Assembly: GCA_022841665.1 (NCBI GenBank)
Contig: JALHRB010000005.1
Coordinates: 1-64,000 of the forward strand
Direction: 5' to 3'
DNA length: 64,000 bases
Origin: Pseudolabrys sp.
GTDB lineage: Bacteria; Pseudomonadota; Alphaproteobacteria; Rhizobiales; Xanthobacteraceae
Under the pieces are notes generated by a model. The model was not told the origin of the DNA. It did not search any database and worked only from the letters and a program-made list of their open reading frames with translations. Numbering within the stretch: position 1 is the first letter of the stretch; every line of letters starts with the position of its first letter. A program made the position numbers and the translations under genes. Below are positions 25,510 to 52,827 of this stretch, piece after piece.

Positions 25510-26280
25510 ATGGCCAAAGGCCACAAGGACAAAGTCGCCGTCATCACCGGGGCGGCCAGCGGGCTGGGTCAGGCCTTTGCCAAGCGCCTTGCTGAAGACG
25601 GCGTCGACATCGCCGCCGTCGATCTCGGCGACGCCGCGGCTACCGTGAAGGCGGTGGAGGCGGCGGGCCGCAAGGCGGCAGCGTTCAAGTGTGACGTGTC
25701 GTCGCCCGATGCCGTCACGGCGATGGCGGCGGACGTCCGCAAAATCTTTCCGCGCGTCGACATCGTCGTCAATTGCGCCGGCATCTTTCCGCAGATTCCG
25801 CTGGAGAAAGTCACTTACGCCGAGTGGCGCCGCATCATCGGCACCAATCTCGACGGCACGTTCCTGGTCAGCATGGCCTTCGTCCCGGACATGAAGGCGC
25901 GCGGCTGGGGCCGCATCGTCAATCTGTCATCGAGCACGGTCGGCGCGGTGGTGACGGGCTTCGTGCCCTATGTCACCAGCAAGCTCGGCATCGTCGGCTT
26001 TACGCGCGCGCTGGCGTCCGAACTCGGGCCCTTCGGCATCACCGTGAACGCCATCCAGCCCGGTCTCACCATGACGCCCGGCGCCACCTCGCGGCCGCCG
26101 CGCGCGGGCTTCGCCACCATGGACGAGGAATTTGCCGACGTCGCCAACCGCTTCCAGGCGATCAAGCGGGTCGAGACGCCGGACGACCTCACCGGCGCGG
26201 TCTCTTTCCTCACCAGCGACGATTCGGCCTTCATCACCGGCCAGACGCTCAACGTCGACGGCGGCCGCGTGCGGTCCTAG
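25510..26280 (+). CDS. SDR family NAD(P)-dependent oxidoreductase
   Basis: VITGAASGLGQAFAKRLAEDG; VNCAGIFP; YVTSKLGIVGFTRAL. Confidence 0.92.
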   Translation: MAKGHKDKVAVITGAASGLGQAFAKRLAEDGVDIAAVDLGDAAATVKAVEAAGRKAAAFKCDVSSPDAVTAMAADVRKIFPRVDIVVNCAGIFPQIPLEKVTYAEWRRIIGTNLDGTFLVSMAFVPDMKARGWGRIVNLSSSTVGAVVTGFVPYVTSKLGIVGFTRALASELGPFGITVNAIQPGLTMTPGATSRPPRAGFATMDEEFADVANRFQAIKRVETPDDLTGAVSFLTSDDSAFITGQTLNVDGGRVRS

Positions 26281-26368
26281 CCTATTGACTTAAATCCCAG
26301 AACGTGCTGACCTTGCCGAGTCGGCCCTTCGGCGTGCGCGTCATGAGGTGCGCGGCGCGGGTCAGACG

Positions 26369-26537
26369 GCGGCGCCCGACAATAGCGCCGCAGGTGGAGC
26401 GTCGGGAGGCGCAGGGCCCTTCGCCAAAGGGCCCGCGCGTCTCGCCAGACGCGCGGGCGGGGCTCGCACCCCCGCCCAAAGGGCGCCGTAGCGCAGCGCC
26501 CTGGCGCCTCCCGGCGCTCCATTTCTCTTCGGAGAAA
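26369..26537. other. Multi-hairpin element: 17-bp outer stem enclosing four hairpins, plus flanking hairpins
   Basis: Outer stem 26396-26412/26504-26520; hairpins 26414-26434, 26435-26454, 26455-26477, 26481-26501; flanking 26369-26391 and 26522-26537 (TTTCTC-TTCG-GAGAAA). Confidence 0.8.
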
Positions 26538-26607
26538 GGAAAAAGGGAACGGCCTTCCCCGGGCCTTCGCAAAGAACAGGGGCGATGGCGCTTGCCCGCC
26601 GAACCGC

Positions 26608-27774
26608 TCAGGCCGCGCTCTTCCTGCCCCACAGCCGCGCCGTGGCGATGTCGGCGCCTTCGCGCAGCGACTTGAGTTTGAGCCACACCGCCGGCTCGAT
26701 CACCCATTCCCGGTTCGTGAAGGTGCCGAAGCCGCAATCGGTCGAGGCGATCACGCGCTCGCGCTCGCCGACCGCGGCGACCGCTTCCTCGATGCGCCGC
26801 GCCACCACTTCCGGATGCTCGACGAAATTGCTGGTCGTCTCGATCACCCCGGGAATGAGCAGCATGTCCTTCGGCAGTGGGTGCTTCTTGAAGGCCGCGT
26901 ATTCATGCGCGTGGCGCGGGTTGGAGAACTCGATCGACAGTGCGCCGACCTGGGCCTGGTAGAGCGCCGGCAGGATCTTCTCCAGCGGCACGTCGTGGAT
27001 GTGCGGGCCTTCCCAGTTGCCGTAACAGACGTGCAGCCGCACGCGCTCGCGTGGAATGCCGGCGATGCCTTCGTTGATCGCCTGCACGTGCCGTTCCACC
27101 GCCTTGACGAAACCGGCGTCGTCGAGGTCGCGGTACATCATGGTGCGGTCCATGGCGAGGTCGGGCGCGTCGATCTGCAAAATCAGCCCGGCCATATGGA
27201 TGGTCTGGTACTCGTTCCGCATCTCGCGCGCGATCGCGCTCAGGTACTTGTCCTGCGAGCCGTAGAAGGCGTCGAGCATGGTCGACGAAATAATGCCGGG
27301 CGAGGGCGCCGTCATGAACATCTCCGAGAACTTGCCCTCGGCGATCGTCTTGAAGCGCGCGATCTCGCTCTCCAGCGGCTTCACGTCGATGTACTTCAAT
27401 TCACTCTGGCACTCGGGCGCGTTCTGCTGCTTGCTGACCTGCGGGAAGCGCCGAATCAGGCTCGCCACCAACTCGGGGAATTCCTCGAATTCGCGCCCGC
27501 GCCGCCGCTTCGACACGCCGGCGAAGCCGCGCATGCGCTGCGGCACATAGGTCTGGAAGCCGACGCGCTGCTGCTCGCCGTCATTGCCGATGTCGATGCC
27601 GGCCGCCGCCTGCTTGCCGACCACATGGCGCACGGCGTTGTCGAGCTCGGCCGCCATCTCCTTGGCGTCGAACGGCTGGCCGGCTTCCTGCCGCACCAGC
27701 AGGTCGGACAGTTTGTCGTTGCGCGGCAGGCTGCCGACATGGGTGGTCAGAATGCGCTCCCGGCTCGGAATCAT
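26608..27774 (-). CDS. Cobalamin-independent methionine synthase II family (MetE C-terminal-like) protein
   Basis: MIPSRERILTTHVGSLPRNDKLSDLL; HVCYGNWEGPHIHDVPLEKILPAL. Confidence 0.85.
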   Translation of the reverse strand: MIPSRERILTTHVGSLPRNDKLSDLLVRQEAGQPFDAKEMAAELDNAVRHVVGKQAAAGIDIGNDGEQQRVGFQTYVPQRMRGFAGVSKRRRGREFEEFPELVASLIRRFPQVSKQQNAPECQSELKYIDVKPLESEIARFKTIAEGKFSEMFMTAPSPGIISSTMLDAFYGSQDKYLSAIAREMRNEYQTIHMAGLILQIDAPDLAMDRTMMYRDLDDAGFVKAVERHVQAINEGIAGIPRERVRLHVCYGNWEGPHIHDVPLEKILPALYQAQVGALSIEFSNPRHAHEYAAFKKHPLPKDMLLIPGVIETTSNFVEHPEVVARRIEEAVAAVGERERVIASTDCGFGTFTNREWVIEPAVWLKLKSLREGADIATARLWGRKSAA

Positions 27775-27856
27775 AATTCGCGGCTCCACTTGCTGCCCGA
27801 CATTGCGGCGTTTCCTGTCCCTCTGCATAATAAGCGCCGCCTCGGGAGGAAACACA

Positions 27857-29455
27857 ATGACAATGGCCGACACGCAAACGGCCCAGCCAGACGCGCCTGC
27901 CGCAATGGGCGCGGTCCCACGCGATTACAACTTCGCCGCCGACGTGCTGGCGATGAATCTCGCGGCCGGCCGCGCCAACAAGCCGGCTTATATCGACGCG
28001 CGCGGCACGCATACCTACGGCGCGCTTGCCGACCGGGTTGCGCGTTTCGGCGCCGCGCTGCGCGGCCTCGGCATAAGGCGCGAGGAGCGCGTGCTGCTCG
28101 CGCTCACCGACACCATCGATTGGCCGACCGCGTTCCTCGGCTGTCTGAAGGCCGGCATCGTCGCCGTGCCGGTCAACACGCTGCTTACCGAGGACGATTA
28201 CCGCTTCATGCTGGCCGACAGCCGGGCGAAATGCCTGGTGGTCTCGGAAGTGCTGTTTCCGAAATTCGAGAAGATCATCGCGCAGAGCCCGGACCTCGAG
28301 CACGTCATCGTCTCGGGCGAAACGCCGCACGGCTACCGCCTGTTCGAGGACGTCATCGGCGCCGACGAGCCGGAGGACTACACCGCGCCGACCACGTGCG
28401 ACGACATGGCGTTCTGGCTCTACACCTCGGGCTCGACCGGCAAGCCGAAAGGCGCGGTGCATTGCCACGCCAGCCTCAAGCTCACCGCCGACCTCTACGG
28501 CACGCCGGTGATGGGCCTGAAGGAAAGCGACGTCGTACATTCCGTCGCCAAGCTGTTCTTCGCCTACGGGCTCGGCAACGCGCTTACCTTCCCGCTCTCG
28601 GTCGGCGCCACGACCGTCCTGAACGCAGAGCGGCCGACCCCCGATGGCGTCGCGGCGCTGCTGCGCAAATATCCGATCACCGCCTTCTTCGGCGTGCCGA
28701 CCTTCTACGCGGCCTTCCTCAACAGTCCCAACGCGCCGTCGAAGGCGGAAGTGAAACTGCGCCGCTGTCAGTCGGCCGGCGAGGCGCTGCCCGAGGAAGT
28801 GGCGAAGAGGTTCTTCGAGCGCTATGGCGTCGAGGTTTCCGACGGCCTCGGCACCACCGAGATGCTGCACATCTTTCTCACCAACCGGCCGGGCCAGAAC
28901 AAGTACGGCACCACCGGGAAGGGGGTTCCCGGCTACGAGATCAAGCTCATGGGCGAAGACGGCCAGCCGGTTCCGCAAGGTGAAATGGGCGAACTCTACG
29001 TGCGCGGACCGACGGCGGCGGTGATGTACTGGAACAACCGCGAGAAATCGCGCGACACGTTCCGCGGCGAATGGACCCGCTGCGGCGACAAATACATCGA
29101 GGACGCCGACGGCTACTACGTCTGCTGCGGCCGCGCCGACGACATGCTCAAGGTGTCGGGCATGTATGTCTCGCCTTTCGAGGTTGAGGCGGCGCTCTCC
29201 TCGCACCCGGAGGTGCTGGAGGCGGCGGTGGTCGGCTGGTTCGACGACCAGCGGCTGGTGAAGCCGAAGGCCTTCGTGGTGCTGAAGGTGCCGGACAAGG
29301 CCACCGAGGAGCTGGTTCAGGCGTTGCAGGAGCACGTCAAGCAGAAGCTCGCGCCGTTCAAGTATCCGCGCTGGATCGAGTTCCGTGTCGACCTGCCCAA
29401 GACCGCGACCGGCAAGATACAGCGTTTCAAGTTGCGGGCGGAAGGGCAGCTGTGA
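27857..29455 (+). CDS. Benzoate-CoA ligase family / AMP-dependent acyl-CoA synthetase
   Basis: YTSGSTGKPKGAVH; DGLGTTEMLHIFLTNRPG; LPKTATGKIQRFKLR. Confidence 0.9.
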   Translation: MTMADTQTAQPDAPAAMGAVPRDYNFAADVLAMNLAAGRANKPAYIDARGTHTYGALADRVARFGAALRGLGIRREERVLLALTDTIDWPTAFLGCLKAGIVAVPVNTLLTEDDYRFMLADSRAKCLVVSEVLFPKFEKIIAQSPDLEHVIVSGETPHGYRLFEDVIGADEPEDYTAPTTCDDMAFWLYTSGSTGKPKGAVHCHASLKLTADLYGTPVMGLKESDVVHSVAKLFFAYGLGNALTFPLSVGATTVLNAERPTPDGVAALLRKYPITAFFGVPTFYAAFLNSPNAPSKAEVKLRRCQSAGEALPEEVAKRFFERYGVEVSDGLGTTEMLHIFLTNRPGQNKYGTTGKGVPGYEIKLMGEDGQPVPQGEMGELYVRGPTAAVMYWNNREKSRDTFRGEWTRCGDKYIEDADGYYVCCGRADDMLKVSGMYVSPFEVEAALSSHPEVLEAAVVGWFDDQRLVKPKAFVVLKVPDKATEELVQALQEHVKQKLAPFKYPRWIEFRVDLPKTATGKIQRFKLRAEGQL

Positions 29456-29462
29456 TTTTCCT

Positions 29463-29566
29463 TGTCATCACCGGGCCGCCGCGAAGCGGCGTGACCCGGT
29501 GATCCCGCTTAGGCGGGCACAGTGCCTTCCTAAGCGGGATGGCCGGGACAAGCCCGGCCATGACAA
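29463..29566. repeat. Palindromic intergenic repeat, family 4
   Basis: TGTCATCACCGGGCCGCCGCGAAGCGGCGTGACCCGGTGATC; GGCCGGGACAAGCCCGGCCATGACA. Confidence 0.8.
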
Positions 29567-29578
29567 TCGAGAGTACGA

Positions 29579-31899: not shown

Positions 31900-34857
31900 G
31901 TGGCGGTAGTGCGGCCCGGGCTTGAAAGGCGGCTGAAGGCCGAGCTGACGGGGGATGTGCGCTTCGACCGCTTCAGCCGCGGGCGCTACGCGACCGACGC
32001 ATCCCATTACCAGATCATGCCGTTGGGCACGGTCACCCCCCGCACCATCGAAGAAGCCGATCGGGCGATAGCGATTGCCAAGGCGGAAGGCGTGACCGTG
32101 CTGGCGCGCGGCGGCGGCACCTCGCAGAGCGGCCAGACCGTCGGCGAGTCGCTGGTGGTCGACTGCTCGAAATTCCTCACCCGTATTCTCGATCTCGACG
32201 TGAAGGGGAAGCGCTGCACGGTCGAGCCCGGAATCGTGCTCGACGATCTCAACCGCCAGCTCAAAGCGCACGGGCTGTGGTTTCCGGTCGACATCTCGAC
32301 CTCCTCGCGCGCCACGCTCGGCGGCATGGCCGGCAACAATTCGTGCGGCGGCCGCTCGCTGCGCTACGGCACCATGCGCGACAACGTGATCTCGGTCGAA
32401 GCGATCCTGGCGGACGGCACGCTCGGCCATTTCGGCCGCATCGGCGGCAGCCTCAACGACGTGCCGCCGCCGCTGCGGCCGCTGGTCAAGGACCTGCTCG
32501 CGATCGGCGCGCGCGAGGCGTCCGAGATCGAGGCGCGTTTTCCCAAGGTGCAGCGCCGCGTCGGCGGCTACAATCTCGACGCGCTGGTGCAAGGCGCGTA
32601 TCTTGGCAAGAACGACGTCAACCTCGCGCATGTGCTGGTCGGCTCGGAAGGCACGCTCGGTTTCTCGACCCGCATCGAATTGAAGTTGGCGCCGCTGCTC
32701 GGGCGCCGCGCCGTGGGCGCCGTCCACTTCGGCAGCTTCTACGAGGCGATGAATGCCGCGCAGCATCTGGTGCGGCTGAAGCCGATCGCGGTCGAATTGA
32801 TCGACCGCACCATGATCGAGCTGGCGCGCAAGATTCCGATCTTCCAGCCGACGCTGGAGCGATTCGTGCGCGAGACGCCGGAGGCGGTCCTGCTGGTCGA
32901 GTTCGGCGAGGACGACCACGAGGTGAACCTGCGCCTGCTGCGCCAGCTCAAGGAGCTGGTTGGCGACCTTGGCTTCGGGTGGGACAAGCCGGGCGCCAAA
33001 TGGGGCGGCGTGGTCGAGGTGCTCAATCCGGAACTGCAAGCCGCCATCACCGAGGTGCGCACGTCAGGCCTCAACATCATGATGTCGATGAAGGAGGAGG
33101 GGAAGCCCGTCTCCTTCGTCGAGGACTGCGCCGTGCCGCTCGAGCACCTCGCCGACTACACCAGCCGCCTCACCGCGATCTTCGAGAAGCACGGCACGCG
33201 CGGCACCTGGTACGCGCATGCGGGCTCCGGCTGTCTGCACGTGCGGCCGATCCTCAACCTGCGCCAGGAAAAAGACGTCCACGCCATGCGCGCGATCGCG
33301 GAGGAAGCCTTCGCGATGGTGCGCGAGTACAAGGGCTCGCATTCCGGCGAGCACGGCGACGGCCTGGTGCGCTCGGAATTCAACGAGCCCATGTTCGGTG
33401 CGAGACTGGCGCGGGCGTTCGAGGACGTAAAGGATCGTTTCGATCCGGACGGCCTCTACAACCCCGGCAAGGTGGTGCGGCCGCCCAAGTTCGATGACCG
33501 CAGCCTGTTCCGCTACAAGCCGGACTACCGCGGCGAGAACATCAAGACGGAGCTCGACTGGTCGGCGTTCCCGGGCGCCGGCGGCGGTTTCCAGGGCGCG
33601 GTCGAGATGTGCAACAACAACGGCGCCTGCCGCAAGTTGGCCGGCGGCGCCATGTGCCCGAGCTATCGCGTCACGCGCGACGAGCGCGACGTCACGCGCG
33701 GTCGCGCCAACACCTTGCGGCTCGCCGTCACCGGCCAGCTCGGCCCGGACGCGCTCGCTTCCAAGGAAATGGCCGAGACGCTTGCACTGTGCGTCTCCTG
33801 CAAAGCCTGCCGGCGCGAATGCCCGACCGGCGTCGACATGGCGCGCATGAAGATCGAGGTGCAGGCGGCGCGCGTGAAGAAACGCGGCCTGTCGCTGCAT
33901 GACCGGCTGATCGGCTATCTGCCGCGTTATGCGCCCATGGCCGCGAAGCATCCTTATTGGTTCAACCTGCGCAACGACAGTCCGGTGCTGCGCCGCGCCG
34001 CGGAAACTTTCGCCGGATTTTCAAGCCGCCGCAGCCTCCCGAAATGGCGCAAGGACATCTATCGCGACCGCTCGGACTGGCGCTATCCGCCTGCCGGCAG
34101 CAAGGCGCCAGTGCGCGAGGTCGTCTTGTTTGCCGATACCTTCAACCGCTACTTCGAGCGCGAAAACCTCGACGCCGCGCTGAACGTGCTGCTGGCCGGC
34201 GGCTATCATGTGCACGCCGCGCTGCCCAAGGACGGCCATGACCGCCCGCTCTGTTGCGGCCGCACCTTTTTGTCCGCCGGCCTCGTGGACGAAGCGCGCA
34301 AGGAAATGCAGCGCACGCTCGATGCACTCGCGCCCTTCGTGGCGCGCGGCGTGCCGGTGATCGGGCTGGAGCCGAGCTGCCTGTTCTCGTTCCGCGACGA
34401 GGTGCCGGCCTTGCTCAAGGGCGAGGCGGTCGACGCGTTGGCGGCGAACGCGCTGCTGCTGGAGGAGTTCCTCGCGCGCGAGCAGAAAGCTGGCACGCTT
34501 AACCTGCCGCTCACGCCCTTGCCGAGGAAGGCGCTGCTGCACGGCCACTGCCACCAGAAGGCCTTCGACGCCATGGGAGCGGTGGAAAGCGTGCTGCGGC
34601 TGGTGCCCGAGCTTTCGGTCGAGACGGTGGAGTCGAGCTGCTGCGGCATGGCCGGTTCGTTCGGCTACGACGCCGCCACCATCGACGTCTCGCTCAAGAT
34701 GGGCGAGCTGTCTTTGCTGCCGGCCGTGCGCAAGGCGCCTGCCGATGCGCTGGTGGTGGCCGACGGCACCTCCTGCCGGCATCAGATTCATGACGGCGCG
34801 CACCGCGAAGCACTTCACATCGCGCGTGTGCTGGAGATGAGCCTGGCGGCGGGCTGA
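31900..34857 (+). CDS. FAD-linked oxidase + Fe-S (GlcD/GlcF-type) fusion protein
   Basis: 985 aa; VLARGGGTSQSGQTVGESLVVD FAD domain; CVSCKACRRECPTGVDMARMK Fe-S; CCGMAGSFGY CCG motif. Confidence 0.92.
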   Translation: MAVVRPGLERRLKAELTGDVRFDRFSRGRYATDASHYQIMPLGTVTPRTIEEADRAIAIAKAEGVTVLARGGGTSQSGQTVGESLVVDCSKFLTRILDLDVKGKRCTVEPGIVLDDLNRQLKAHGLWFPVDISTSSRATLGGMAGNNSCGGRSLRYGTMRDNVISVEAILADGTLGHFGRIGGSLNDVPPPLRPLVKDLLAIGAREASEIEARFPKVQRRVGGYNLDALVQGAYLGKNDVNLAHVLVGSEGTLGFSTRIELKLAPLLGRRAVGAVHFGSFYEAMNAAQHLVRLKPIAVELIDRTMIELARKIPIFQPTLERFVRETPEAVLLVEFGEDDHEVNLRLLRQLKELVGDLGFGWDKPGAKWGGVVEVLNPELQAAITEVRTSGLNIMMSMKEEGKPVSFVEDCAVPLEHLADYTSRLTAIFEKHGTRGTWYAHAGSGCLHVRPILNLRQEKDVHAMRAIAEEAFAMVREYKGSHSGEHGDGLVRSEFNEPMFGARLARAFEDVKDRFDPDGLYNPGKVVRPPKFDDRSLFRYKPDYRGENIKTELDWSAFPGAGGGFQGAVEMCNNNGACRKLAGGAMCPSYRVTRDERDVTRGRANTLRLAVTGQLGPDALASKEMAETLALCVSCKACRRECPTGVDMARMKIEVQAARVKKRGLSLHDRLIGYLPRYAPMAAKHPYWFNLRNDSPVLRRAAETFAGFSSRRSLPKWRKDIYRDRSDWRYPPAGSKAPVREVVLFADTFNRYFERENLDAALNVLLAGGYHVHAALPKDGHDRPLCCGRTFLSAGLVDEARKEMQRTLDALAPFVARGVPVIGLEPSCLFSFRDEVPALLKGEAVDALAANALLLEEFLAREQKAGTLNLPLTPLPRKALLHGHCHQKAFDAMGAVESVLRLVPELSVETVESSCCGMAGSFGYDAATIDVSLKMGELSLLPAVRKAPADALVVADGTSCRHQIHDGAHREALHIARVLEMSLAAG

Positions 34858-34866
34858 CTCTCGATT

Positions 34867-34954
34867 GTCATGCGCGGGCTTGACCCGCGCATCCCGCTTA
34901 GTTGGGCAACGTGCCTTCCTAAGCGAGATGGCCGGGACAAGCCCGGCCATGACA
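34867..34954. repeat. Palindromic intergenic repeat, family 4
   Basis: TGTCATGCGCGGGCTTGACCCGCGCATCCCGCTTAG...GGCCGGGACAAGCCCGGCCATGACA. Confidence 0.8.
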
Positions 34955-35798: not shown

Positions 35799-35934
35799 CC
35801 GAATGCTAATCGCAAATTGGAATGAATAAAAATAGTTTGTGCAAGCAGAATGACCCGCCCGGAGGGGACAGCCGGGCGGGTCGCGATCGGCGCGGGGATG
35901 GACGGGGGCTGACGCCGATCGATGGGGGATTGGG

Positions 35935-36201
35935 TCAATACGGGACCGCGTCGCAGACCTTGACCACGCGCAGGTTGCCCCAGCGGTCGTAGCGCTCAAC
36001 GTAGCGGCAATCCCGGTAATAGGCCGGCGCGGCATAGGCGCTGGAGGCGGCGGCCGCGCCGATCAGGGCGCCGGCGGCCAGACCGATGCCGAGGCCGACG
36101 CCAAAGCGCGGGCGGGCCTGGGCTTCGCCGCCCGCGGCGGCAAGCGCGGTGGCAAGCGTAAGGGCGACGAGGGCGGCGGCGAAGGTTTTGGACTTGGTCA
36201 T
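35935..36201 (-). CDS. Small exported glycine-zipper-like protein
   Basis: MTKSKTFAAALVALTLATALAAAGGEAQA signal; GVGLGIGLAAGALIGAAAASSAYAAP. Confidence 0.7.
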   Translation of the reverse strand: MTKSKTFAAALVALTLATALAAAGGEAQARPRFGVGLGIGLAAGALIGAAAASSAYAAPAYYRDCRYVERYDRWGNLRVVKVCDAVPY

Positions 36202-40357: not shown

Positions 40358-41176
40358 TCACGCGGCCTTGGCCGGCCAGTTGTGGCGTTCCTCGGCGGCG
40401 AAGCGCAGCCAAGCGAACAAAGCATCGTAGACCATGAAGCCGCGGTCGAGGAGGCCATGATCGTCGTCCCCGGCCAAGGCCGACAGGCCGAGCGAGACGG
40501 CGTGCAGTCCGGCGGCCTCCGGCGCGAAGTCCGGCCGCGCGGTGTCGGCGCCGCGCACGATCAGCGCCAGCCGCGCCAGCGACGGCTCGCCTTCGAGGCC
40601 GAACAGCTTGAGCATCGTATCGAACGAGCAGCGCTCGCCCTCGTGGCTCAATTCGACGTTCTTGATGTCGAAGGGAACGGCGCCGGTCTCGCGCGCGACA
40701 TTCTGCACCTGGTCCGGATCGACGAACAGGATGCGCGCCTGGCTGTCGAGGAAGCGCTTGATCAGCCACGGGCAGGCGATGCGGTCGATCTTGGGCCGCC
40801 GCCGCGTCACCCAGACGCTCGGGCGCTTCGGCGCCAGCCGGTCGAGCTCCGCTTTGGCGACGAAGGGCAGGCCCGCCTTGGCCCAGGCTTCGTAGCCGCC
40901 TTCCAGCACGCGCGCATCGACGCCGTCGGCGCGCAGCTGCGCCACGGCGCTCTGGCTCATTTCATGGCCGGCCTTGCAGGCGAGGACGAGCGGGCGGTCG
41001 AACGCGTCCGCCCATGCGCGCGCCTTGGCGGCCTCGCGCCAGACGGCGCCAGGCAATAGATGCGGCGATGGTGCGTAGGCGTCGGGCCGCCGCACGTCGA
41101 TGAGTTGCGGCGCGTCGCGCGTCGCCAGCGCGTTCCAGAGATCTTTTGCTGAGATGGAATAGCTCGGAGACAGCAT
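40358..41176 (-). CDS. Rhodanese + ChrB-type chromate resistance fusion protein
   Basis: Rhodanese LACKAGHEMSQSAVAQL; ChrB domain WVTRRRPKIDRIACPWLIKRFLD. Confidence 0.9.
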   Translation of the reverse strand: MLSPSYSISAKDLWNALATRDAPQLIDVRRPDAYAPSPHLLPGAVWREAAKARAWADAFDRPLVLACKAGHEMSQSAVAQLRADGVDARVLEGGYEAWAKAGLPFVAKAELDRLAPKRPSVWVTRRRPKIDRIACPWLIKRFLDSQARILFVDPDQVQNVARETGAVPFDIKNVELSHEGERCSFDTMLKLFGLEGEPSLARLALIVRGADTARPDFAPEAAGLHAVSLGLSALAGDDDHGLLDRGFMVYDALFAWLRFAAEERHNWPAKAA

Positions 41177-41177
41177 G

Positions 41178-41253
41178 GGTCCCCTCCGTGAACGAAGGAG
41201 ACGGTGCTTGGGCCCGCGAGCCTGGAAGCGCGGGGCGACCGCCGTTGGCCCCA
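41178..41253 (-). promoter_or_regulatory. Candidate cis-regulatory RNA leader, type 1 copy A
   Basis: TGGGGCCAACGGCGGTCGCCCCGC...GGCCCAAGCACCGTCTCCTTCGTTCACGGAGGGGACCCATG; near-identical to 42136-42211. Confidence 0.75.
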
Positions 41254-41268
41254 CTTGGAAAAGCTAGC

Positions 41269-42021: not shown

Positions 42022-42099
42022 AGCGATCGCTCCCAAGGAGAGAGGGCGCAGCGCTTGGATGAGTGTCATCTGACGGGGAGGCGGCTTGGTCCCCGAGCT
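42022..42099 (-). promoter_or_regulatory. Candidate cis-regulatory RNA leader, type 2 copy D
   Basis: CGGGGACCAAGCCGCCTCCCCG; GATGACACTCATC; ends at the TauE-1 ATG. Confidence 0.65.
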
Positions 42100-42135
42100 T
42101 TGATTGTTTTCGAATGTTAGTTCGTAAGCAACAAA

Positions 42136-42211
42136 GGTCCCCTCCGCGAACGAAGGAGACGGTGCTTGGGCCGGAGCCTTGGGAAATGCGGGGCGACCGC
42201 CGTTGGCCCCA
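42136..42211 (-). promoter_or_regulatory. Candidate cis-regulatory RNA leader, type 1 copy B
   Basis: TGGGGCCAACGGCGGTCGCCCCGC...GGCCCAAGCACCGTCTCCTTCGTTCGCGGAGGGGACC. Confidence 0.75.
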
Positions 42212-42255
42212 CAACTGAAACATATCGCGGTTGGCCCGCCGCCACAAGCGCCCGC

Positions 42256-47737: not shown

Positions 47738-47750
47738 GTTTCGCAGTCTT

Positions 47751-47856
47751 GTCATGGCCGGGCTTGTCCCGGCCATCCCGCTCAGGGAGGCAAGGCTATG
47801 ACACGATAATCGGGATCACCGGGTCACGGCGCTGCGCGCCGGCCCGGTGATGACAA
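47751..47856. repeat. Palindromic intergenic repeat, family 4
   Basis: TGTCATGGCCGGGCTTGTCCCGGCCATCCCGCTC...ATCACCGGGTCACGGCGCTGCGCGCCGGCCCGGTGATGACA. Confidence 0.8.
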
Positions 47857-47872
47857 GGAAGGGATTGATCGC

Positions 47873-52647: not shown

Positions 52648-52689
52648 GGCCCCAATTTAGGGATTGGGGGAGGCAGCGGCAAGTTAACT

Positions 52690-52827
52690 GTCATCACCGG
52701 GCCGGCGCGCAGCGCCGTGACCCGGTGATCTCGCTCAGGAAGGCACTGCGTCCCTAAGCGAGATGGTCGGGTCAAGTGTCACAGCCGGGCCGGCCGAAGG
52801 CCGGACCCGGTTGCCCGGCCATGACAA
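52690..52827. repeat. Palindromic intergenic repeat, family 4 (compound)
   Basis: TGTCATCACCGGGCCGGCGCGCAGCGCCGTGACCCGGTGATC...GCCGGGCCGGCCGAAGGCCGGACCCGG..CCCGGCCATGACA. Confidence 0.8.

What the first reader, a model, noticed from the sequence alone, without database searches (positions are those of the whole stretch)
26396..26520. 125-nt element: 17-bp closing stem around four back-to-back hairpins
Seen directly. Outer stem GGAGCGTCGGGAGGCGC (26396-26412) pairs with GCGCCTCCCGGCGCTCC (26504-26520), with a single G.U. Inside, nearly contiguous, are GGGCCCTT-CGCCA-AAGGGCCC, GCGCGTCT-CGCC-AGACGCGC, GGGCGGGG-N7-CCCCGCCC and GGGCGC-N9-GCGCCC. This is a five-way junction with almost no unpaired nucleotides, in the convergent gap between an SDR gene and a MetE-like gene. 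No ordinary terminator looks like this. Inference: a structured ncRNA, a cruciform-forming mobile element, or a protein-bound architectural site.
Basis: partly seen in the sequence, partly recalled or inferred. Interest (0 to 1): 0.72.

Follow-up and report, generated by a model that had tools for sequence, protein, structure and literature searches.

The report
Dispersed, promoter-bearing structured-RNA gene family
The odd knot of hairpins is real: it is the core of a previously uncatalogued RNA gene, several hundred bases long, that one family of soil and water bacteria carries in one to a dozen scattered copies; its shape is conserved while its sequence changes, and its job is unknown.

Summary
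Window 26396-26520 folds as a 17-bp closing stem around exactly four hairpins (-107.8 kcal/mol with flanks, z -8.5). It is not chance and not an isolated site. It is the core of a roughly 310-520-nt unit found in 18 of 40 genomes (17 of 39 genera) sampled from its GTDB family, and in none of 39 genomes from other alphaproteobacterial families. Genomes carry 1-12 matches at unrelated intergenic sites.

56 of 62 relatives keep exactly four arms (22 of 150 with shuffled interiors). Outer-stem sequence is near-invariant; the arms covary. The same locus can carry a two-arm core instead.

Four signals place the RNA on the window + strand: upstream promoter motifs, G.U excess over A.C mismatches, a downstream H-type pseudoknot with an A-rich loop 3, and (in 17 of 70) a 3' motif equal to the rrn-leader boxA. 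One genome has three copies 93-96% identical over ~510 bp at unlinked loci, so whole units are copied as DNA. No Rfam match, no coding signature, no Y1/RAYT transposase in five congeners.

Best reading: a new family of standalone structured ncRNA genes spreading like a non-autonomous mobile element. Function and transcription are untested; the window copy has a weak promoter.

The parts
26285..26290 (+). TTGACT, possible -35 five nt after the SDR stop codon; no good -10 follows in this copy
   Evidence: Position resembles the TTGAC-type promoter of relatives, but one search found no promoter-like site here and one search lists this copy as 'none'
26307..26365 (+). 5' hairpin P1 (CTGACC 26307-26312 / GGTCAG 26360-26365) with an inner hairpin whose loop carries TCATGA
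   Evidence: Fold of the unit; relatives keep a hairpin here whose loop is often a short palindrome
26369..26391 (+). hairpin P2, GCGGCGC/GCGCCGC, loop CCGACAATA
   Evidence: fold; loop CCGACAAY conserved in many relatives
26396..26412 (+). 5' strand of the near-invariant 17-bp outer stem
   Evidence: 12 of 17 pairs never vary in 20 sequences
26414..26434 (+). arm H1
26435..26454 (+). arm H2 (about 21 nt, or 44-58 nt and more with nested hairpins in relatives)
26455..26477 (+). arm H3
26480..26502 (+). arm H4
26504..26520 (+). 3' strand of the outer stem
26522..26537 (+). short hairpin P4 TTTCTC-TTCG-GAGAAA
   Evidence: Sequence; hairpin kept with other sequences (CCCTCG..CGAGGG) in relatives
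26538..26549 (+). purine tract GGAAAAAGGGAA
   Evidence: Conserved at this place in most four-arm relatives
26551..26582 (+). H-type pseudoknot: S1 GGCC/GGCC (26551-26554 with 26562-26565), S2 CCCC/GGGG (26557-26560 with 26579-26582), A-rich loop 3 26566-26578 (TTCGCAAAGAACA)
   Evidence: in relatives loop and downstream strand covary, permutation p < 1/2000
26583..26596 (+). diverged 3' tail (family consensus GGCGGAGCGTTGGC)
   Evidence: 31 of 70 relatives have GCGGAGCGTTGGC with at most 1 mismatch; the rrn-type boxA found in 17 of 70 is absent here

Best explanation
The feature is the core of a dispersed structured-RNA gene. Supported by sequence evidence: the unit carries promoter motifs at its 5' end in about half of the copies; the RNA strand is the window + strand; the RNA would fold into 5' hairpins, a five-way junction (17-bp stem plus four arms), a small hairpin, a purine tract and an H-type pseudoknot, sometimes ending in an rrn-type boxA. 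Selection keeps the arms' pairing but not their sequence, whereas it keeps the outer-stem sequence itself. Inferred: the four arms act as a rigid scaffold; the constant outer stem is what a protein (or the copying machinery) recognises; the unit spreads between intergenic sites by DNA-level copying as a non-autonomous element, because the promoter block is copied with the rest; and cores of different type (four arms, two arms) are exchanged between units by recombination in the shared flanks. Whether the RNA serves the host (as a scaffold or regulator) or mainly its own spread is not decided; I lean slightly to the latter.
For: Family and distribution: 58 of 300 family genomes by BLAST of this core alone; 18 of 40 by covariance model against 0 of 39 genomes of other alphaproteobacterial families; order-wide hits only in the own family. 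Structure: 56 of 62 cores have exactly four arms versus 22 of 150 with shuffled interiors; native arm halves pair better than swapped halves; 18 pairs changed on both sides, covariation 0.244 versus 0.136 +/- 0.010 shuffled and at most 0.113 slid. Strand: mismatches inside Watson-Crick stems are G.T 67 versus A.C 30 in the + strand sense (34 versus 11 elements, p = 8e-4); pseudoknot with A-rich loop 3. Promoter motifs upstream in sense: TTGAC..-10 17 of 68 versus 1 antisense, TTATCCCCG-type 18 of 68 versus 2; downstream 3/0 and 0/0. boxA downstream in sense 17 of 70, none upstream or antisense; it matches GGCTGTTTGACAAGTGAATCGGAA in the 16S leader of G056; in the own genome this motif occurs only twice, both at elements. 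Mobility: three copies in G037 93-96% identical over ~510-520 bp with unrelated flanks; about a dozen two-arm copies in G017; two cores in one MAG 97.7% identical over 171 bp. Not coding: core length not locked to 3, frames alike. Gene context without orientation preference, neighbours are unrelated housekeeping and metabolic genes.
Against: No transcript data. The window copy has no good -10 and a diverged tail, so this copy may be silent or decayed. About half of the relatives show no promoter by these patterns. No target-site duplication or dedicated transposase was found, so the copying mechanism is unknown. The elements are patchy and often lost, which is not what an essential RNA would show. 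Sequences in the sets are related, so the p-values overstate independence; the covariance model was trained on the strand it prefers.
Confidence: 0.68

Rival explanations
1. A DNA-level element only: a cruciform- or hairpin-forming mobile repeat (REP/BIME- or MITE-like) for which single-stranded DNA folding matters and transcription does not.
For: Multi-copy, intergenic, near-identical units at unlinked sites; very long palindromic ends; outer-stem sequence invariant like a recognised terminal repeat.
Against: G.T over A.C asymmetry, sense-only promoter motifs, sense-only boxA and A-rich pseudoknot loop are strand-specific RNA features. No Y1/RAYT transposase in five congeners including the own genome. 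No duplication seen at the ends of the G037 units.
Confidence: 0.15
2. A host regulatory RNA: a trans-acting sRNA or RNA sponge kept for benefit, with dispersal a by-product of duplication.
For: Conserved fold and promoter block; copies at the same locus in different species (MetE-like site in two congeners as four-arm and several as two-arm; tatC-serS gap in several genera).
Against: Patchy (absent at the MetE-like site in about half of congeners; absent upstream of serS in 27 of 30), 0-12 matches per genome, no recurrent partner gene.
Confidence: 0.25
3. A cis-acting leader or 3' element (riboswitch, terminator or antiterminator) for the neighbouring gene.
For: boxA in 17 copies; a terminator-like hairpin plus T run on the minus strand (26560-26544) could end the MetE-like mRNA; in a few loci serS lies downstream in sense.
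Against: Upstream and downstream genes lie in all four orientations without clear preference, with no functional theme; serS without the element has only a short gap with a promoter-like sequence of its own.
Confidence: 0.08
4. Chance self-complementarity of GC-rich intergenic DNA, or a by-product of a coding sequence.
For: GC content about 0.8; long open frames cross the element.
Against: z -8.5, homologues with covariation, no frame lock.
Confidence: 0.01

Closest known systems
Br-REP1 / Br-REP2 of Bradyrhizobium and Rhodopseudomonas (PMC5082802)
   Same: Dispersed palindromic intergenic repeats in the same broad group, seen in transcripts near 3' ends; Br-REP1 lies in an element with three stem-loops
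   Different: Short palindromes (CCGGAATCTCGAGATTCCGG; CGAGATTCCGGGTTCGGCTCTT..) at 50-200 sites; no closing stem, five-way junction or pseudoknot described; those sequences are not in this unit
REP elements with GTAG/CGTC tags and RAYT transposases (PMC3733652)
   Same: Intergenic palindromes that spread within alphaproteobacterial genomes
   Different: 20-40 bp single hairpins in high copy; here a ~310-520-nt unit, 1-12 matches per genome, no Y1 transposase in five congeners
Large ornate orphan RNAs (GOLLD, ROOL, OLE; PMC12286853)
   Same: Large multi-branched structured ncRNA without known partner gene
   Different: No match in Rfam; multi-copy and chromosomal in one bacterial family
Guide RNAs of mobile elements (IS110 bridge RNA PMC11208160; OMEGA RNAs)
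   Same: A structured ncRNA travelling with a mobile unit
   Different: No recombinase gene within the unit; complementarity to target sites not tested
rrn leader boxA (Nus-factor antitermination)
   Same: 3' motif of 17 copies equals the boxA-like sequence upstream of 16S rRNA in the same bacterial family
   Different: Here it lies after the structured part, at the end of the unit, often facing an unrelated or convergent gene

Membership tests
Structured noncoding RNA (general) | Compensatory base-pair changes across divergent homologues | tested here: met
Structured noncoding RNA (general) | Own promoter in sense | tested here: inconclusive
   Motifs in 35 of 68 relatives, strongly strand-biased; weak in the window copy
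Structured noncoding RNA (general) | Transcript detected | not testable with these tools
   No expression data available
Any Rfam 15 family | Score above gathering threshold | tested here: not met
REP/RAYT elements | Single short palindrome, high copy | tested here: not met
   Unit of ~310-520 nt with five-way junction, 1-12 matches per genome
REP/RAYT elements | RAYT (Y1) transposase in the genome | tested here: not met
   0 of 5 genus genomes incl. own; Y1 present in 4 of 4 carriers of other genera
MITE | Target-site duplication at unit ends | tested here: not met
   Three recent copies in G037 show none by eye
MITE | Parent transposon with the same terminal repeats | not tested
   Not searched
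Intrinsic terminator | Stem followed by a U run on the transcribed strand | tested here: inconclusive
   Weak tail CCATTTCTCT after the core on the + strand; a better one on the minus strand at 26560-26544
Riboswitch or leader | Recurrent downstream gene class in sense | tested here: not met
Protein-coding element | Conserved reading frame | tested here: not met
   Core lengths mod 3 (0/1/2) = 33/19/21, all frames similarly open
Br-REP1/Br-REP2 | Published consensus present | tested here: not met
   Neither consensus occurs in 26285-26596 by direct reading

The most novel reading that the evidence does not exclude
The unit is a non-autonomous mobile element whose own folded transcript (five-way junction plus pseudoknot) is the scaffold or guide that a recombinase encoded elsewhere uses to copy it: an RNA-dependent mobility system not yet described. 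No recombinase or target pairing has been shown.
Probability: 0.1. Interest if true: 0.9.

Novelty: new variant of a known kind. Interest (0 to 1): 0.62.

Why it matters
Large structured bacterial RNAs of unknown function are few, and several became important once understood. This one is spread over many genera of one family, includes culturable hosts (titles of matching records name Afipia, Pseudolabrys, Pseudorhodoplanes, Rhodoplanes), and combines features not usually seen together: a promoter-bearing RNA gene that disperses like a mobile element, an invariant closing stem with interchangeable four-arm or two-arm cores, a pseudoknot, and an rRNA-type antitermination site. It also supplies a ready set of natural sequence variants for testing junction folding, and flags a possible source of spurious short ORFs in these genomes.

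Tried and rejected
Rfam at gathering and permissive thresholds on the window, on 16 relatives and on the long unit: nothing relevant. Plasmid collection: no match. Literature searches for a described five-way-junction repeat or multi-copy structured RNA in Bradyrhizobiaceae/Xanthobacteraceae: none found; PMC8632094 does not mention these taxa. Coding reading: tempting because conserved codon-like strings (VERREAQ, WRLPALH) appear, rejected by lack of frame lock. serS leader idea (tatC-element-serS in three genera): rejected because 27 of 30 serS gaps lack it and bare gaps are short with a promoter-like sequence of their own. Programmed frameshift idea (A-rich tract then pseudoknot): dropped, no conserved slippery heptamer and no coding frame. 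RAYT-driven spread: no Y1 transposase in five congeners. A first anchored swap test of pseudoknot stem 2 was uninformative because most anchored copies share CCCC/GGGG; a loop-based permutation test was then positive. A free search for pseudoknots also scores well in many shuffles, so only the permutation test is relied on. Automatic detection of palindromic loops in the 5' hairpin was not above control by my score, so that observation is left unproven.

Full report
OBSERVATION. The stems described are at the stated coordinates. 26386-26530 folds with -107.8 kcal/mol, z -8.45, no shuffle of 200 as good. The site lies between an SDR gene ending at 26280 and a Meth_synt_2 gene on the minus strand, 26608-27873. 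Rfam has no match.

A FAMILY, NOT A SINGLE SITE. BLAST with the 125 nt gave matches in 58 of 300 genomes of the GTDB family of the host, and a pattern scan of named genomes gave further copies in records titled Afipia, Pseudolabrys, Pseudorhodoplanes, Rhodoplanes and unnamed Xanthobacteraceae. I extracted about 60 relatives with a paired outer stem. A covariance model finds matches in 18 of 40 genomes of the family, 17 of 39 genera, up to 12 rows per genome (some rows are the two strands of one copy), none in 39 genomes from other alphaproteobacterial families and, with stricter filters, none outside the family in an order-wide sample of 398. The own genome holds the window copy, a second four-arm copy (C15:3430-3548) and several 76-88-nt relatives with two arms.

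ANATOMY. Call the window + strand the sense strand; this choice is justified below. In sense order the unit is: a promoter-like block; a 5' hairpin; a hairpin with loop CCGACAAY; the core; a small hairpin (CCCTCG..CGAGGG type); GGAAAAAGGGA; an H-type pseudoknot; GGCGGAGCGTTGGC; and in some copies CTGTTTGANAATTGAATC. Homology between copies at unlinked loci runs from about -125 to +80..+120 of the core. Longer versions with an additional 5' domain reach about 520 bp.

CORE. 56 of 62 relatives fold into a 17-18-bp outer stem with exactly four arms; with the interior shuffled 22 of 150 do. Arms are about 21 nt; the first and second may be 41-58 nt or more through nested hairpins; the fourth is nearly always about 21 nt. 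Halves of arms taken from the same element pair better than halves swapped between elements. On the sequence alignment A2, which was not fitted to the structure, 18 of 38 pairs have changes on both sides and the covariation score is 0.244 against 0.136 +/- 0.010 shuffled and at most 0.113 when slid. The outer stem is different: 12 of its 17 pairs never vary. Pairing is conserved in the arms, sequence in the outer stem.

WHICH STRAND. (i) Mismatches enclosed in Watson-Crick stems are G.T 67 and A.C 30 in the + sense, 34 elements against 11, p = 8e-4; this is the bias expected if the + strand RNA is what folds. (ii) TTGAC plus a -10 lies upstream in sense in 17 of 68 and antisense in 1; a TTATCCCCG block in 18 against 2; downstream 3/0 and 0/0. 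(iii) The pseudoknot has an A-rich loop 3, and its second stem covaries: CCCC/GGGG, CCGGC/GCCGG, GCCGG/CCGGC, TCCGC/GCGGA, CGCGG/CCGCG and others; permuting the downstream strands among 59 elements never reached the observed mean in 2000 trials. (iv) The terminal motif is found downstream in sense in 17 of 70, never upstream or antisense, and equals the boxA-like sequence of the 16S rRNA leader in G056, a genome of the same family. In the own genome the motif occurs twice in 3.85 Mb, both next to elements. All four agree; none proves transcription.

NOT CODING, NOT A LEADER. Core lengths are not locked to multiples of three and all frames are alike. Flanking genes stand in all four orientations, and encode pantoate ligase, UreF/UreG, an aminotransferase, TctC, peptidases, TatC, SerS, LepA and so on. 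Three loci share the tatC-serS gap, but only 3 of 30 sampled serS genes have an element upstream, and bare gaps are as short as 46-350 nt, some with a promoter-like sequence.

MOBILITY AND CORE EXCHANGE. In G037 three copies are 93-96% identical over 510-520 bp with unrelated flanks; no target-site duplication is evident. In G017 about a dozen two-arm copies are 86-91% identical. Two four-arm cores in one MAG are 97.7% identical over 171 bp starting 3 nt before the core. Downstream of the MetE-like gene in 30 congeners, two have a four-arm core, at least seven a two-arm core with the same flanking modules, some a remnant, two an apparently different outer stem, and about half nothing. So units are gained or copied, lost, and their cores apparently exchanged. 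Because the promoter block is copied too, spread is at DNA level rather than by reverse transcription of the RNA (inference). There is no Y1/RAYT transposase in five genomes of the genus.

INTERPRETATION. Shown by sequence: a conserved, covarying, strand-specific RNA-like fold with promoter motifs, in a dispersed and recently mobile unit. Inferred: that it is transcribed, that the four arms are a scaffold, that the constant stem is a recognition site, and that the unit is at least partly selfish. The window copy itself has a poor promoter and a diverged tail and may be decaying.

LIMITS.

Noticed in passing
L245-L274 (downstream of the MetE-like gene in congeners): The same intergenic site carries four-arm, two-arm, remnant or apparently different cores with shared flanking modules, suggesting exchange of cores by recombination.
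   Followed up: partly
L315, L316, L317 (G037): A ~510-bp version with an extra 5' structured domain and a four-arm core whose outer stem reads GGAGCGCCGTGAGGCGC, intermediate between the two core types.
   Followed up: partly
5' ends of many units, e.g. L043, L202, L226: A block AAAACTTATCCCCGC / AAAAGTTATCCCCGC about 120 nt before the core, followed by a TTATNTTC box; resembles neither a standard -35 nor an exact DnaA box. Unexplained.
   Followed up: partly
5' hairpin of many units (window 26330-26356): Loops are often short palindromes that differ between copies (TCATGA, CGATCG, CTCGAG, CTTAAG, TCTAGA, TGATCA), as in kissing loops; not significant by my automatic score.
   Followed up: partly
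window 41160-41254 and 42118-42212: Two 95-nt direct copies (82% identical) next to an Rfam chrB-b RNA (42048-42095, minus strand); possibly related cis-regulatory RNAs.
   Followed up: no
window 35852-35942 (minus strand): Rfam match to Rhizobiales-2 sRNA (48.3 bits, gathering 40).
   Followed up: no
window 29458-29574, 34857-34954, 47749-47860, 52689-52776: A different dispersed palindromic repeat (TCATCACCGGGCCG..CGTGACCCGGTGAT..) in several copies of both orientations; other repeats at 2957, 6010, 8727 and 16572, 46151, 46214.
   Followed up: no
window 26560-26544 (minus strand): A terminator-like hairpin and T run that could end the MetE-like mRNA; it overlaps the pseudoknot region of the opposite strand.
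   Followed up: no
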